A stretch of 64,000 bases of DNA, from positions 36,618 through 100,617 of the IMG/VR virus record IMGVR_UViG_3300002052_000634. One strand, 5' to 3'. The position numbers and the translations under genes were made by a program. The DNA is from a virus. Positions 2,386-10,695 of the stretch are shown here, one piece after another (within the stretch, counting starts at the first letter, position 1; every line of letters begins with the position of its first letter). The notes under the pieces were generated by a model that searched no databases, was not told the origin of the DNA, and worked only from the letters and a program-made list of their open reading frames with translations.

Positions 2386-3013
2386 GTTCTTGTTTCCTTT
2401 TCCATTTATAATATCTTTTCATAATTTCTTCGAAGCTTACAGGATAGAAATTCCAACAATCTACACCAACATTGATAGCATCGGTAAAACCAAAGGAGGT
2501 TTTTATCCGTTTAATTTGCCATGCTAAATGAACATGCCCTACTAGATTTATTTTATAGTTAGGGTCGACGTGAGCAGGATTGTGTACTATATTTATTCTT
2601 TTACCTCCATATCGAATTACTAATCTTTCGATAGGAGTTTTTACTCCATTATTTCCGTCATGATTTCCTTTACAAAACAAAATTTTTCCATTCAATTTCT
2701 TCTCTATTTCTGTAGGTTTAATCGGAAGTCCTTCTCCTTTTTTTCCACCTGGAGAATTCTTAAAAATGAAATCGCCAACAAAAATAACTAAATCTTCTGG
2801 TTTTACTCTTTCATTCCAACGTCTAATTAATTCTTTATTCATTTTATCTAGAGATTCGAAACTAATAGCGAATTTTCGTTGTTCTTCTTGGGATTTATTT
2901 TTATAAATTTCATATAACTCTTTATCTTCTTTAGTCATAAATTCAGTACGACCTACATATTTTAAAATATTAGCATGGTTAAAGTGAGTATCTGCTGAAA
3001 ACCAAAGTTTCAT
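2348..3013 (-). CDS. Calcineurin-like metallophosphoesterase
   Basis: 221 aa. Metal-binding motifs appear in the usual order: DTHFNH (residues 8-13), GDFIF, GNHDG and, near the C-terminus, GHVHLAW. This is a compact single-domain phosphoesterase of the kind common in phages. The substrate is unknown; phosphodiester, cyclic nucleotide or RNA ends are possible. It overlaps the CCA-adding enzyme gene by 4 bases, so translation is probably coupled. RNA-end chemistry with that neighbour is an inference only. Confidence 0.8.
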   Translation of the reverse strand: MKLWFSADTHFNHANILKYVGRTEFMTKEDKELYEIYKNKSQEEQRKFAISFESLDKMNKELIRRWNERVKPEDLVIFVGDFIFKNSPGGKKGEGLPIKPTEIEKKLNGKILFCKGNHDGNNGVKTPIERLVIRYGGKRINIVHNPAHVDPNYKINLVGHVHLAWQIKRIKTSFGFTDAINVGVDCWNFYPVSFEEIMKRYYKWKRKQEHGEQNKHKKNSK

Positions 3014-4005
3014 TTCTTTCCTTTCTCATCTGCTTCTTTCAAAGGACTATCTTGTTCTAAGTGATGTAAGACTAAATTTTTTACAATTTCTCTTCTGTCA
3101 TTAGACCACTTTAAATACAAAGCTAATCTGGTCACAAATTCTACTGCTAACAATTCATGCTTTATATAATTACTTCTATCTTCTCTATCAGTTCTCACGA
3201 AAGGTTTACCAATATCATGTAACAGTCCTGCCCATCTAAGATTTATTTCTTTAGGAGTATTAAGAACTACTCTCTTTGTATGTTCCCACAAAGTAAAGTT
3301 ATGATGAGGGCTGTTTTGTTCATAAGCTATTTGCAAAGATAATTCTGGAAGTATAAAATTCAATAATTTTGTTTTTGCCAAAAATTCTAATCCTACTTCT
3401 GGATGGTCTGCCAATAGTAATTTATCGAGTTCGGCTACCCATCTTTCCTTACTAATCTGTAATATTTTATAATTCATAGAATTTACAGCATGATAAATAG
3501 AAGGATGTATTTCAAATTCTAACTGAGAAGCGAATCTAGCTACTCTAAGCATCCTCAAGGGGTCTTCTTTGAATCTCTCATTTGGCTTTCCAACACATCT
3601 AATAATTTTATCTTGAATATCTTTTCTTCCACCAAAAGGGTCAATGTATCTATCTCCTGTTTTAGCAATAGCGTTAATGGTAAAATCTCTTCTGCTTAAA
3701 TCAGCAGTGATGTCTTTGACAAAAGTAACTTCAGGTTTTCTACTTCCAGATTTATATTTTTCATTTCTAAATGTAGTTATCTCAATTAGATTACCGTTTA
3801 TTTTTACTCCTAAAGTCCCGAATCTTTTTCCTGTCAAATAAGGTCTTCTACCTGCTTTTCTAATAGAAGCTTCAATTTCATCTGGAGTTAAAGGAGTAGT
3901 AAAATCAAAATCTTTAGGAACGTTCCCTAAAATTTTATCTCTAACTGCTCCTCCTACCATATAGAGAGGACTAACTATTTTTTTGACTTCTTCGTATATA
4001 GTCAT
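3010..4005 (-). CDS. cca: CCA-adding tRNA nucleotidyltransferase with HD domain
   Basis: 331 aa. The N-terminal polymerase-beta-like head has GGAVRD and the metal pair DFDF, then RRDFTINA and the RxxRFA region typical of class II CCA-adding or poly(A) polymerases. A C-terminal HD-type segment has HTKR and HDIGK. The family repairs or adds CCA on tRNA 3' ends. The gene lies in the same leftward block as two CCA-ended RNA elements (6910-6972 and 10591-10660), which may be substrates. It overlaps the next nucleotidyltransferase gene by 35 bases. Poly(A) polymerase activity is the main alternative. Confidence 0.85.
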   Translation of the reverse strand: MTIYEEVKKIVSPLYMVGGAVRDKILGNVPKDFDFTTPLTPDEIEASIRKAGRRPYLTGKRFGTLGVKINGNLIEITTFRNEKYKSGSRKPEVTFVKDITADLSRRDFTINAIAKTGDRYIDPFGGRKDIQDKIIRCVGKPNERFKEDPLRMLRVARFASQLEFEIHPSIYHAVNSMNYKILQISKERWVAELDKLLLADHPEVGLEFLAKTKLLNFILPELSLQIAYEQNSPHHNFTLWEHTKRVVLNTPKEINLRWAGLLHDIGKPFVRTDREDRSNYIKHELLAVEFVTRLALYLKWSNDRREIVKNLVLHHLEQDSPLKEADEKGKK

Positions 4006-4948
4006 ATAAAATCCCTATTGTAAATTTTTCGATTTCTTCAGTTCTCGGTTTAGCAGGTAGCGTACTCGATATTGTCAAAGATTCCATTTCTCTTTCTAGT
4101 TGCTCAGAAAATTCCAAGACTTGTTCTACAGTCCATTTGCCTTCTCTAATATCTAGAAGTAATTGTCTTTCTTTCAAAGGGAATTCTAATTTGCCAGTTT
4201 TCAATAATTCTATTCCTTCTAACATTAATCTTATTAAATGACTCGCAAATTTTACATCGAATCCATATCTATTTAACAACCCTCTCCTATTTCCTACTTT
4301 TGATATTCTTTCTTCTAAACTCTTTATAACTTTCTTAATTGGTAACGATGGAGAAAAATTTATATCTCCGATTGAAACAAACTTTACATTATTATATCCC
4401 GATTTTCTTAATTTAATAAAATGAGGACAAGTAGATAAAGTAATAACTTCTATTAGAAATTTATTTTTATCTATTTTCGAAAGATAATTAACTCCATTAA
4501 TCAAGTCAAAATAACAATCTTTCTTTATTATCATTTTGTGTTTTTGAGAAAAAGCATATCCTAAAAATTTTTGTTTTAATCCTTTATGTGGAAAAAGATG
4601 TTTAATATCTAATAATTTCTGTCCTAATTCATTTTTGAATACTATATTTTTTTCGTTTACAAATAATATCTCCAAAATATTAGGGTTATTTGAAAGAGCG
4701 AGTTGGATAAATTTTCTAAATTCGTAGAGTTTTCTATCTATAGCTTTATCAGTATTTTTTCCGTTTTCGTCTTTGGCTTTTATAGAAAGATTAACTTCTT
4801 CACATTTTTTAAATCCCAATATATATTCTATAGGAGATAAGAAAATCCCTATATAATCTTTGTCAGAATTTTCAGTGTTAGTTCCATACAAATGAGACCC
4901 TGATATTATTTCTAAAATTTTATTTTTATCGGCAATTAAAGGATTCAT
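3971..4948 (-). CDS. Predicted nucleotidyltransferase (PF10127-like)
   Basis: 325 aa. The N-terminus carries GSHLYGTNTENSDKDYIG, the GS-x(n)-DxD signature of the phage/bacterial DNA polymerase beta-superfamily nucleotidyltransferases once called YcgL-like. The rest is helical. The likely role is transfer of a nucleotide to RNA or protein, substrate unknown. Pairing with a CCA enzyme suggests RNA work, but that is inference. Confidence 0.75.
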   Translation of the reverse strand: MNPLIADKNKILEIISGSHLYGTNTENSDKDYIGIFLSPIEYILGFKKCEEVNLSIKAKDENGKNTDKAIDRKLYEFRKFIQLALSNNPNILEILFVNEKNIVFKNELGQKLLDIKHLFPHKGLKQKFLGYAFSQKHKMIIKKDCYFDLINGVNYLSKIDKNKFLIEVITLSTCPHFIKLRKSGYNNVKFVSIGDINFSPSLPIKKVIKSLEERISKVGNRRGLLNRYGFDVKFASHLIRLMLEGIELLKTGKLEFPLKERQLLLDIREGKWTVEQVLEFSEQLEREMESLTISSTLPAKPRTEEIEKFTIGILYDYIRRSQKNS

Positions 4949-6972: not shown

Positions 6973-7131
6973 TTATTTTTCTAATTTCGTTAATTCATCA
7001 TCAGTAATGGTACAACATACAACATTCTCATCTTCATTATAATAAACAGCATAACCTTGTCTAACTAGAGCAGTTATAAGTTGGTCTGTATAATTTTTGT
7101 CTAATATTTGGATTTTAAGTTCGTATTTCAT
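6973..7131 (-). CDS. Hypothetical protein, 52 aa
   Basis: Starts MKYELKIQILDKNYTD. An alternating beta/alpha pattern and a CC pair near residue 39. It overlaps the end of the Mom-like gene by 17 bases and ends exactly at the start of the structured RNA. Confidence 0.6.
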   Translation of the reverse strand: MKYELKIQILDKNYTDQLITALVRQGYAVYYNEDENVVCCTITDDELTKLEK

Positions 7132-7720
7132 TTAGAATTTTCTTTCTGGTTTTTTTATTCAATATTTTTATAAATCTTTTTTTTAAAGGTTTTTTCTTTA
7201 ATTCTAATCTATTGCCATAAATTTCTTTCATTTTCCCAACTGCTTGTATTCCATGTTTATCATACAAGGTTCTCGGTGAAATTCTTTTACCATCAATAAA
7301 AAATAAAGGATGACCGTCCTTTCCAATAATTCCATCAAATATCCATCCACTTGCTTTATATACCATTCCATTATGACCAGCAAAAGGGTCTGAATATGTA
7401 ACAATCAAATCATAATTATATGATTTTTTGATTTTTTTTATTACTTCTGCTGTTAAACTACTCATACTCCATTTGTGGTTATCTTTACCGACCATTCTTG
7501 CTAATTCAATAACTTTTATATTTTTTTGACTGTATTTTTTTTCATAAATCCTCGACCTACAATTTGTAAATACCAAACAACCTTCTTCGTGTCCATAAGC
7601 AAATAAAATCCCTTTTACTTCTCCAAGATAATGCCATTTATTTAACATAGTATTTGCTATTTTTTTATCCAATTTGATAATTGGTGGAGTTTTCTGTAAT
7701 CCGCTTAATTTGTAATTCAT
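7115..7720 (-). CDS. Mom-family (GNAT-fold) DNA-modification-like protein, copy 2
   Basis: 201 aa. The core VTYSDPFAGHNGMVYKASGW matches the YxD-x(4-5)-G-x(2)-YxA-x(2)-[FW] signature of Mom-type acyltransferase-fold proteins. These phage enzymes change adenine in DNA to N6-carbamoylmethyl-adenine and so block restriction. The second half differs from copy 1: a lysine-rich tail replaces the KHRYI...PYPKG segment. It may therefore modify another base or act as a different GNAT transferase. Start ATG at 7720, 1 base after the upstream gene. The family assignment is from motif memory. Confidence 0.6.
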   Translation of the reverse strand: MNYKLSGLQKTPPIIKLDKKIANTMLNKWHYLGEVKGILFAYGHEEGCLVFTNCRSRIYEKKYSQKNIKVIELARMVGKDNHKWSMSSLTAEVIKKIKKSYNYDLIVTYSDPFAGHNGMVYKASGWIFDGIIGKDGHPLFFIDGKRISPRTLYDKHGIQAVGKMKEIYGNRLELKKKPLKKRFIKILNKKTRKKILNEIRT

Positions 7721-8204: not shown

Positions 8205-8453
8205 TTAAGCCTTTTCTGTATAACCACAATTCCAACATTTCTTATCATCTCCAAGTATATAATCTATTTCTTGTTTACATTCAGGACAAACCCATATGTT
8301 CTCTTTTCTTCCCCAATCATCTTCATCAACCATTACAATTTTAGTTCCTTTACATGCAGGACAAGTTATTGTTGAAGCACTGCTAACAGGCTCAGGATTA
8401 TCTATTAATCCTCTTCCTCTACAACTAGGACATACTATTGGGTATCTTCTCAT
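8205..8453 (-). CDS. DnaJ-type zinc finger protein, 82 aa
   Basis: Three Cys pairs: CPSCRGRG, CPACKGT and CPECKQ, then CWNCG. The CxxCxGxG repeats resemble the DnaJ cysteine-rich domain, without a J domain. Probable small chaperone-like or RNA/protein-binding zinc protein. Confidence 0.7.
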   Translation of the reverse strand: MRRYPIVCPSCRGRGLIDNPEPVSSASTITCPACKGTKIVMVDEDDWGRKENIWVCPECKQEIDYILGDDKKCWNCGYTEKA

Positions 8454-8794
8454 ATTTTTCTTGATACCTCCAGTCTATAGGAGTCAGAATCAGAGTGAGG
8501 AGTAGAAACTTCTAAAATAACAGATTTAGGAGTTAGAGAACGAAATCTATGGTAGACTCCTGGTTTAATTCTTATTTGCTTTCCTTCTCTTAATTTAATA
8601 ACAAAAGTATAATCGTTTATTTTTATATCTAATTCTACAGTTCCACCTAGTATATAAAAAGTTTCGTCTTTCTTTTTGTGCATATGTAAACTACATTGAT
8701 ACCCTTGAATCAAATTGAGACGTTTTGCACAATACTTATCCGTATTGACTAACCATTCTTCACTGCCCCATAATTTAGGAACGTATTTTATCAT
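8450..8794 (-). CDS. Cupin-domain protein (sugar isomerase-like)
   Basis: 114 aa, single double-stranded beta-helix. SLHMHKKKDETFYILGG gives the HxH...E metal site and PGVYHRF the second His motif, as in the cupin end of mannose-6-phosphate isomerase/guanylyltransferases. A second cupin is encoded at 53777-54178. Substrate unknown. Confidence 0.75.
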   Translation of the reverse strand: MIKYVPKLWGSEEWLVNTDKYCAKRLNLIQGYQCSLHMHKKKDETFYILGGTVELDIKINDYTFVIKLREGKQIRIKPGVYHRFRSLTPKSVILEVSTPHSDSDSYRLEVSRKI

Positions 8795-9917: not shown

Positions 9918-9946
9918 ATTATATCATATAATATGTTTGGTGTCAA
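9918..9946 (-). promoter_or_regulatory. Sigma70-type promoter with extended -10
   Basis: Minus strand: TTGACA (9946-9941), 17-bp spacer, TATAAT (9923-9918) preceded by TGA. It lies just after the Mom gene stop and faces the membrane-protein genes. Confidence 0.85.
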
Positions 9947-9956
9947 GGTTTTAAAT

Positions 9957-10196
9957 CTATTTATTTTTGTTTAGTAAATCAAAATTTATCTTATATCTTT
10001 GATTTTTTCCTTTTGGGTAAGGTAATACTTTATATCTTAAATTATGTCTAAATACTGTTTTGTCTGCCTTATTGCCAAGAAATAAGATATACCTGTGTTT
10101 TGGAAACCAGGCTACTCTTTCTGTAAAATCTCCTACATAATGTCTAGGATGTTTTCCTCCTTTTCCTTTTATATGAGTTCTTTTTTTTTCCCACAT
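9957..10196 (-). CDS. mom-like: Mom-family protein copy 1, C-terminal part in -1 frame
   Basis: The open frame carries KKRTHIKGKGGKHPRHY and then KHRYILFLG and LPYPKGKNQRY. These are the conserved C-terminal motifs of Mom-family adenine-modification proteins. They continue in register the protein encoded at 10169-10576 if the ribosome or polymerase slips -1 in the A9 run at 10181-10189. The joined product would be about 206 aa, a normal Mom length. An internal ATG at 10196 exists but has no convincing binding site. Either programmed slippage, a true inactivating frameshift, or a homopolymer read error explains the break. Confidence 0.7.
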   Translation of the reverse strand: MWEKKRTHIKGKGGKHPRHYVGDFTERVAWFPKHRYILFLGNKADKTVFRHNLRYKVLPYPKGKNQRYKINFDLLNKNK

Positions 10197-10576
10197 CCAG
10201 TATATATAAAATTTAATGCTTGATATATATATCCAAAATGATTCATTTTTGTGTCACTATAACTAACAATTATTTTCGTTTTTTCAATTTGTTTTAAACA
10301 TCTAGAAACAAAAAAAGAAAAGCTATTTTTAGGTAAGTTTTCTTTTATAACTAATCTATTAAGTTCTAATACGAATTTTTTAAAAGGTTCTCCGCAAATG
10401 CCTTTGCATACATTAGGACTTGCAAGTTGTCCAAAGGTACATACTCCTATCATTTCTTCTTTATCAAATAACCCAAAAGCTACTGATATAGAAGGTATCC
10501 TTTTAGCGTAATGAATATTTAATAACCATTTTTTAGTATCTTTATATTCTATTCTTCTAACTTCATATTGTATCAT
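10169..10576 (-). CDS. mom-like: Mom-family DNA-modification protein copy 1, N-terminal part
   Basis: 135 aa in this frame, stopping 4 codons after GGG AAA AAA AAA. FVLELNRLVIKENLPKNSFS and VSYSDTKMNHFGYIYQALNF are characteristic of Mom-type GNAT-fold enzymes that convert DNA adenine to N6-carbamoylmethyl-adenine. The sequence continues in the -1 frame (see 9957-10196). The gene starts 14 nt after the CCA end of a tRNA-Gly-like gene and shares its promoter. AAGG is 6 nt before the ATG. Likely role: protection of phage DNA from restriction. The amino-acid donor link is a hypothesis. Confidence 0.75.
   Translation of the reverse strand: MIQYEVRRIEYKDTKKWLLNIHYAKRIPSISVAFGLFDKEEMIGVCTFGQLASPNVCKGICGEPFKKFVLELNRLVIKENLPKNSFSFFVSRCLKQIEKTKIIVSYSDTKMNHFGYIYQALNFIYTGCGKKKELI
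10181..10189 (-). other. A9 slippery run between the two Mom frames
   Basis: On the minus strand GGG is followed by nine A and then GAACTC. Reading GGG AAA AAA AAA then stepping back one base gives AGA ACT and enters the frame holding the rest of the Mom protein. The run is a classic site for transcriptional slippage or -1 frameshifting. Confidence 0.6.
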
Positions 10577-10590
10577 ATTTTGCCTTATTT

Positions 10591-10660
10591 TGGAGCGAAG
10601 AGGTCGATTTTACGCCATCTTAACTCTGGAAGAGTTATGTTTTAATTAAACTATCTTCGC
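10591..10660 (-). tRNA. tRNA-Gly(UCC)-like gene with degenerate D and T arms
   Basis: Minus strand, 70 nt. Acceptor GCGAAGA pairs perfectly with TCTTCGC, followed by T73 and encoded CCA. TA at positions 8-9. D stem GTTT/AAAC encloses only AATTA, with no GG pair. Anticodon stem TAACT/AGTTA encloses CTTCCAG, anticodon UCC. The remaining 19 nt cannot form a five-pair T stem and lack a GTTCRA box. Identity features (U73, UCC, GCG start) fit glycine. The first base lies where the promoter at 10667-10695 predicts transcription start. The missing D-T loop contacts suggest weak use in translation. It may supply glycine elsewhere, or be a regulatory tRNA mimic. Confidence 0.7.
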
Positions 10661-10666
10661 AATTCT

Positions 10667-10695
10667 ATTATATCATATATTACTGTTCGTGTCAA
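10667..10695 (-). promoter_or_regulatory. Sigma70-type promoter for the tRNA-like/Mom unit
   Basis: Minus strand: TTGACA (10695-10690), 17-bp spacer, TATAAT (10672-10667) preceded by TGA. The expected start, 7 nt downstream of the -10 box, coincides with tRNA base 1 at 10660. Confidence 0.85.

What the first reader, a model, noticed from the sequence alone, without database searches (positions are those of the whole stretch)
9957..10695. tRNA-Gly(UCC)-like gene fused by transcription to a Mom-family DNA-modification gene
A minus-strand promoter has its predicted start exactly at base 1 of a tRNA-Gly(UCC)-like sequence with perfect acceptor and anticodon stems, U73 and encoded CCA. A Mom-family gene starts 14 nt after the CCA. 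The D loop has no GG and the T arm cannot form, features that would hinder normal translation. The known Mom base is N6-carbamoylmethyl-adenine, i.e. adenine carrying the atoms of glycinamide. This suggests, as hypothesis only, that glycyl-tRNA made here is the amino-acid donor for a DNA base modification. Alternatives: a regulatory tRNA mimic, or a decayed tRNA that drifted next to mom.
Basis: partly seen in the sequence, partly recalled or inferred. Interest (0 to 1): 0.95.

Follow-up and report, generated by a model that had tools for sequence, protein, structure and literature searches.

The report
Private glycine tRNA for DNA modification
Next to a gene that decorates viral DNA sits a gene for an odd glycine tRNA, and the same pairing recurs in about 180 other viral contigs and in bacterial genomes, which suggests that this tRNA hands glycine to the DNA-modifying enzyme instead of to the ribosome.

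Summary
The RNA is real: window 10660-10591 (-) forms a full cloverleaf (69.8 bits, E 8e-15) 14 nt upstream of a Mom-family gene, behind a perfect sigma-70 promoter. One detail of the finding is wrong. The T arm does form, with one bulged A, and that bulge is the hallmark of a widespread, undescribed RNA family. Two DNA-pattern scans that ignored Mom found 98 and 83 virus contigs with such RNAs; 97 and 81 also carry Mom, nearly always abutting or overlapping the RNA. In whole bacterial genomes the bulged RNAs lie beside Mom every time (14/14 and 8/8) and ordinary tRNA-Gly genes never (0/16 and 0/21). Glycine-identity positions are kept, stems covary strongly, and the T stem that EF-Tu contacts is interrupted. 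Best reading: a dedicated glycyl-tRNA that donates glycine to Mom, a GNAT-fold enzyme without the CoA P-loop, to make the known glycinamide adenine. This is inferred, not shown. Caveats: the window's mom carries a -1 frameshift at an A9 run, belongs to a Mom clade whose other sampled members lack the RNA, and a second Mom gene lies 3 kb away. No paper in the library links Mom to tRNA; papers not held could.

The parts
10591..10660 (-). Mom-associated glycine-tRNA-like RNA: acceptor GCGAAGA/TCTTCGC, anticodon UCC at 10630-10628, U73, encoded CCA
   Evidence: sequence; MFE cloverleaf; model R1 69.8 bits; coordinates checked
10604..10604 (-). bulged A in the 3' strand of the T stem, diagnostic of the family
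10667..10695 (-). perfect sigma-70 promoter TTGACA-17-TATAAT with TG; predicted start at RNA base 1
10169..10576 (-). Mom1, N-terminal 135 aa
   Evidence: Pfam PF25680 E 1.5e-31, PHROG 1384 E 2.2e-46
10181..10189 (-). A9 run at which a -1 shift would join the two Mom1 frames (slippage, recent mutation or sequencing error)
9957..10196 (-). Mom1, C-terminal part in the -1 frame
   Evidence: PHROG 1384 E 7.7e-8, Pfam Mom E 0.02
7115..7720 (-). Mom2, a second, divergent Mom-family protein; possible alternative user of the RNA
   Evidence: Pfam PF25680 E 2e-19, PHROG 1384 E 3.5e-29
3010..4005 (-). tRNA nucleotidyltransferase (CCA-adding type) of the phage; could maintain the RNA's 3' end (speculative)
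   Evidence: Pfam PolyA_pol E 2e-32, PHROG 2244 E 4e-73

Best explanation
The RNA is a dedicated, non-ribosomal glycine tRNA. Host glycyl-tRNA synthetase charges it through its kept identity positions; the bulged A in the T stem and the odd D, T and anticodon loops keep it away from EF-Tu and the ribosome; and Mom, a GNAT-fold transferase, uses the glycyl ester as the source of the glycine unit placed on N6 of adenine. Glycyl transfer to N6 would give N6-glycyl-adenine, an isomer of the known Mom base; attack of the glycine amine on C6 (a Smiles-type rearrangement) would convert it to the known glycinamide form. Shown here: the RNA, its structure, identity positions and near-exclusive genomic pairing with Mom. 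Inferred: charging, EF-Tu avoidance, transfer and rearrangement.
For: Association: two Mom-blind DNA patterns gave 98 and 83 virus contigs with the RNA; 97 and 81 hold Mom, 117 distinct RNAs in all; control pattern 0/13. Whole bacterial genomes: bulged RNA beside Mom 14/14 and 8/8, ordinary tRNA-Gly hits 0/16 and 0/21. Structure: 92.4% of cells paired, 17 of 22 pairs with changes on both sides, covariation 0.631 against 0.194 shuffled and at most 0.144 slid. Glycine identity: G1-C72, C2-G71, U73, C35, C36 (partly required by the search). RNA lies 5' of mom in some loci, 3' in others, with overlapping frames. Chemistry: the Mom nucleoside is named a glycinamide (Swinton 1983, cited in PMC3874153). 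GNAT-fold enzymes that use aminoacyl-tRNA exist (PMC2922099, PMC4964394, PMC10115844). Mom has the GNAT fold, but none of 229 Moms shows the CoA P-loop Q/RxxGxG/A in the loop before helix 3; 11 regex matches lie inside the helix by my reading. S. aureus tRNA-Gly(UCC) with odd D and T loops is charged but poorly bound by EF-Tu and feeds cell-wall synthesis (PMC8007984).
Against: No biochemistry was possible. Many Moms, Mu included, have no such RNA nearby; they would have to use host tRNA-Gly. Mom's nearest solved folds after Mu Mom are CoA-dependent acetyltransferases, not Fem-type enzymes. A review reports that Mu Mom binds acetyl-CoA and iron (PMC10002423), and another assumes glycyl-CoA (PMC7824862). 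In the window, Mom1 is frameshifted and falls in a clade of 88 sampled Moms without the RNA. One RNA of the family (L141) lacks an NCC anticodon.
Confidence: 0.78

Rival explanations
1. The RNA is a tRNA-shaped control element of mom expression: its fold or processing sets how much Mom protein is made.
For: In 29 of 30 distinct loci with the RNA 5' of mom, the mom frame runs open through the whole RNA, most often from a start codon 10 or 13 nt before it, so RNA excision and Mom translation would exclude each other. Mu mom is also controlled at the mRNA, by Com (PMC6483171).
Against: In many loci (51 in one scan, 79 in the other) the RNA lies 3' of mom, and in one it is on the opposite strand. 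Control alone does not explain kept glycine identity positions or an encoded CCA in many members.
Confidence: 0.12
2. The RNA serves phage counter-defence or RNA biology instead, for example as a decoy for anticodon nucleases or for host tRNA quality control.
For: This phage also encodes a CCA-adding enzyme and an RlaP-like RNA-repair protein.
Against: Does not explain near-exclusive linkage to Mom across about 180 virus contigs and several bacterial phyla.
Confidence: 0.05
3. An ordinary or decaying phage glycine tRNA that drifted next to mom.
For: D loop without GG, odd T arm; phages such as A511 carry normal tRNA-Gly genes.
Against: Strong covariation, the same bulge in 117 distinct phage RNAs (required in part by the patterns), ordinary tRNA-Gly never beside Mom in the control genomes, no other tRNA gene found in this record.
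Confidence: 0.02

Closest known systems
Mom DNA modification of phage Mu (Pfam PF25680, PHROG 1384, PDB 8bv8)
   Same: Mom-family protein with GNAT fold; invariant H-Y, R, S, D, G, Y residues shared with Mu Mom
   Different: Mu has no such RNA beside mom or elsewhere in its genome; donors named in held papers are glycyl-CoA or acetyl-CoA
Non-ribosomal tRNA-Gly(UCC) of Staphylococcus aureus used for pentaglycine bridges
   Same: Glycine tRNA with UCC anticodon and altered D and T loops, used by a GNAT-fold transferase (PMC8007984, PMC4964394)
   Different: Here a bulged A in the T stem, often a 6- or 8-nt anticodon loop, gene overlapped with the enzyme gene, and DNA rather than peptidoglycan as proposed acceptor
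Aminoacyl-tRNA-dependent GNAT-fold transferases (FemABX, L/F transferase, MprF, VlmA, ATE1)
   Same: GNAT fold taking an amino acid from a charged tRNA, as proposed for Mom (PMC2922099, PMC10115844)
   Different: They modify proteins, lipids, small molecules or cell-wall precursors; fold search places Mom nearer CoA-dependent GNATs

Membership tests
Mom family (PF25680) | profile match over the curated cut-off | tested here: met
   Mom1 N-terminal part 110.1 bits against cut-off 27.1; Mom2 70.5 bits
Mom family (PF25680) | intact reading frame | tested here: inconclusive
   Mom1 split by a -1 shift at A9; slippage or sequencing error not excluded. Mom2 is intact
Mom family (PF25680) | makes N6-carbamoylmethyl-adenine in DNA | not testable with these tools
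   needs LC-MS of phage DNA
Mom-associated bulged tRNA-Gly-like RNA (defined here) | cloverleaf with one bulged A between the inner and outer T-stem pairs, beside a mom gene | tested here: met
   window RNA 69.8 bits; MFE shows the bulge; mom 14 nt downstream
canonical bacterial tRNA-Gly | GlyRS identity set: G1-C72, C2-G71, U73, C35, C36 | tested here: met
   all present in the window RNA; identity set from established knowledge
canonical bacterial tRNA-Gly | G18-G19 in the D loop and regular 5-bp T stem | tested here: not met
   D loop AAUUA; T stem 4 bp with a bulge; ARAGORN and Rfam tRNA model do not call it
non-ribosomal tRNA-Gly (S. aureus type) | charged by GlyRS but poorly bound by EF-Tu | not testable with these tools
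   predicted from identity positions and interrupted T stem only
CoA-dependent GNAT acyltransferase | P-loop Q/R-x-x-G-x-G/A before helix 3 (PMC4964394) | tested here: not met
   no P-loop match at that place in 229 Moms; 11 regex matches lie inside helix 3 by my reading. Some real CoA-dependent GNATs also have atypical P-loops (PMC4964394)

The most novel reading that the evidence does not exclude
A tRNA-dependent DNA modification system: an encoded, ribosome-shy glycyl-tRNA is the amino-acid donor for a DNA base, with its gene overlapping or even embedded in the reading frame of the enzyme that uses it.
Probability: 0.75. Interest if true: 0.97.

Novelty: categorically new. Interest (0 to 1): 0.93.

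Why it matters
The source of the glycinamide on the Mom base has been given as glycyl-CoA or acetyl-CoA. A conserved glycine tRNA beside Mom makes the question directly testable, would give the first use of aminoacyl-tRNA to modify DNA known to me, and supplies a covariance model with which such systems can be found in any genome. It also shows a tRNA gene sharing its sequence with the coding region of its partner enzyme.

Tried and rejected
(1) Mom1 alone as viral-contig query: no relatives; solved with an alignment. (2) The 80 virus loci closest to Mom1, and 45 whole records of such phages including Mu, A511 and LP65: no bulged RNA, apart from a weak 33-bit hit inside a second Mom of L086. 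A511 and LP65 hits are ordinary tRNA-Gly. (3) Blastn of the RNA against named phages gave only ordinary tRNAs. (4) gltS and other Rfam hits at the window: chance. (5) The nearest relative of this phage found (L290, 86% identical Mom2) has two Mom genes but no RNA in 64.8 kb. (6) Fold search does not favour Fem-type enzymes. (7) Exceptions: L243 has the RNA and only what looks like a mom N-terminal remnant (my reading); L286 holds a Mom cut by the contig end; L395 and L416 lack Mom. (8) The first tree had 18 loci mislabelled; redone. (9) Literature: ten searches; none links Mom to tRNA. The Karambelkar 2020 paper on Mu Mom is not held, and the search for the paper behind PDB 8bv8 did not find it, so prior discussion of glycyl-tRNA there cannot be excluded.

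Full report
What is in the window. The window is the last 64 kb of a 100,617-base virus record. On the minus strand a perfect TTGACA-17-TATAAT promoter (10695-10667) is followed, at its expected start, by a 70-nt RNA (10660-10591). Its minimum-energy fold is a cloverleaf: 7-bp acceptor, 4-bp D arm, anticodon stem around the loop CUUCCAG (anticodon UCC; the fold closes two further loop pairs), and a T arm GGCG-UAAAAU-CG-A-CC with one bulged A. U73 and CCA are encoded. A mom ATG follows 14 nt after CCA. ARAGORN and Rfam miss the RNA, and no other tRNA gene was found in the record.

Mom genes. Mom1 (10576-9957) is split by a -1 shift at A9; both parts match Mom. The conserved C-terminal part beyond the shift suggests a recent change, slippage or a sequencing error. 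A second, divergent Mom (Mom2, 7115-7720) lies 3 kb further along the same strand.

Is there a family? Mom homologues from 80 bacterial contigs were scanned for a GCG...CGCU acceptor with an NCC anticodon hairpin; no T-arm feature was required. Hits clustered at Mom in Chloroflexi, Acidobacteriota, Bacteroidota and others. All but one of those beside Mom (L144) share the bulged A that the window shows. A DNA pattern without any reference to Mom was then run over IMG/VR: 98 contigs matched, 96 had Mom by HMM, one more had Mom cut by the contig end (L286), and the last (L243) shows what I read as a mom remnant. A second pattern for a different sequence type found 83 contigs, 81 with Mom. A control pattern gave 0 of 13. 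The patterns fix the acceptor ends and parts of the T arm, so conservation of those positions in these sets is partly by construction; the Mom linkage is not.

Structure and specificity. On 38 distinct sequences (A3) 92.4% of cells are paired and 17 of 22 pairs show changes on both sides; covariation is 0.631 against 0.194 in shuffles and at most 0.144 for slid pairings. A covariance model R1 was built. In nine whole bacterial genomes it hits bulged RNAs (14, all beside Mom) and ordinary tRNA-Gly genes (16, none beside Mom); most of these nine genomes were chosen because they hold such a pair, but further copies found in them also adjoin Mom. In 301 genomes of the Chloroflexi locus's phylum the top hits split the same way, 8 of 8 bulged beside Mom (one, L307, is the query genome's own); all 21 ordinary hits, one of them from the Bacteroidota search, lack Mom. 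Bulged and ordinary classes were assigned by reading the sequences. In 395 Bacteroidota genomes only the query genome had a bulged RNA. In one lineage (L334, L341) the outer T-stem pairs GG/CC are replaced while the bulge stays. Rfam's tRNA model passes 6 of 20 loci tested, so most such RNAs go unannotated.

Gene arrangement. The RNA either follows mom (51 loci in the first scan, 79 in the second) or precedes it (44 and 2), one being opposite. When it follows, the mom stop codon often lies inside the RNA's 5' end. When it precedes, in 29 of 30 distinct cases the mom frame is open through the entire RNA, the frame is fixed relative to the RNA's 3' end, the other frames have stops in 24 and 28 of 30, and the nearest start codon is most often 10 or 13 nt before the RNA. 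Mom may thus be translated through the tRNA sequence; this is inference. The window differs: RNA and mom1 are separate genes behind one promoter.

Phylogeny. Mom1 falls within a clade of 88 sampled Moms with no RNA beside them (FastTree, many weak branches). The pairing in the window thus looks like an independent association of RNA and Mom, or the RNA serves Mom2. Whole records of 45 phages of that kind, including Mu, A511 and LP65, lack the bulged RNA; such Moms would have to draw on host tRNA-Gly.

Mechanism. The Mom nucleoside was named a purinyl-glycinamide (Swinton 1983, listed in PMC3874153). Reviews assume glycyl-CoA (PMC7824862) or report acetyl-CoA and iron (PMC10002423). The GNAT fold includes enzymes that take amino acids from tRNA. 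The Mom model (pLDDT 90) matches Mu Mom (8bv8) best and then CoA-dependent GNATs, yet the CoA P-loop is absent at its usual place. S. aureus shows that a tRNA-Gly(UCC) with odd D and T loops can be charged, escape EF-Tu and feed a non-ribosomal pathway. From established knowledge, EF-Tu contacts the T stem, where the bulge sits, and bacterial GlyRS reads G1-C72, C2-G71, U73 and C35-C36, which are kept. Glycyl transfer to N6 gives an isomer of the known base; a five-membered-ring Smiles-type rearrangement would yield the glycinamide. These chemical steps are my inference.

Verdict. The pairing of a bulged glycine-tRNA-like RNA with Mom is established by comparison. The donor role is the best explanation (0.78), ahead of a control element (0.12). 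No held paper describes it; the papers most likely to bear on Mu Mom's donor are not held, so the novelty of the donor idea itself is less certain than the novelty of the RNA family.

Noticed in passing
window 10181-10189: A9 run splits Mom1 by a -1 frameshift; a Staphylococcus phage (L008) also has a split Mom gene.
   Followed up: partly
window 7115-7720; L290 1063-2302; L086 399-3306: Tandem or paired divergent Mom genes in one phage genome; in L086 the second Mom overlaps a weak RNA hit (33 bits).
   Followed up: partly
window 3010-4948: Overlapping genes for a tRNA nucleotidyltransferase and an RlaP-like RNA-repair nucleotidyltransferase in a phage without ordinary tRNA genes.
   Followed up: no
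window 8450-8794: Small cupin protein, PHROG annotation cysteine dioxygenase, between the two Mom genes.
   Followed up: no
window 9918-9946: Second perfect promoter of the same type just after mom1; similar copies elsewhere in the record.
   Followed up: no
L200 6822-7550, L257 903-1541, L131 2857-3567: mom reading frame open through the whole tRNA-like RNA with a start codon about 10 nt upstream: a tRNA possibly embedded in a coding sequence.
   Followed up: partly
L125 3593-4237, L131 3554-4189, L149 3575-4204, L141 2426-2953: ParB_N-domain gene adjoins mom in bacterial loci; L155 has a terminase gene, so at least some are prophages.
   Followed up: partly
L141 3577-3649: Clostridial member of the RNA family without an NCC anticodon.
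   Followed up: no
L144 3607-3681: tRNA-Gly(CCC)-like gene overlapping a Mom gene's 3' end but with a regular T stem.
   Followed up: no
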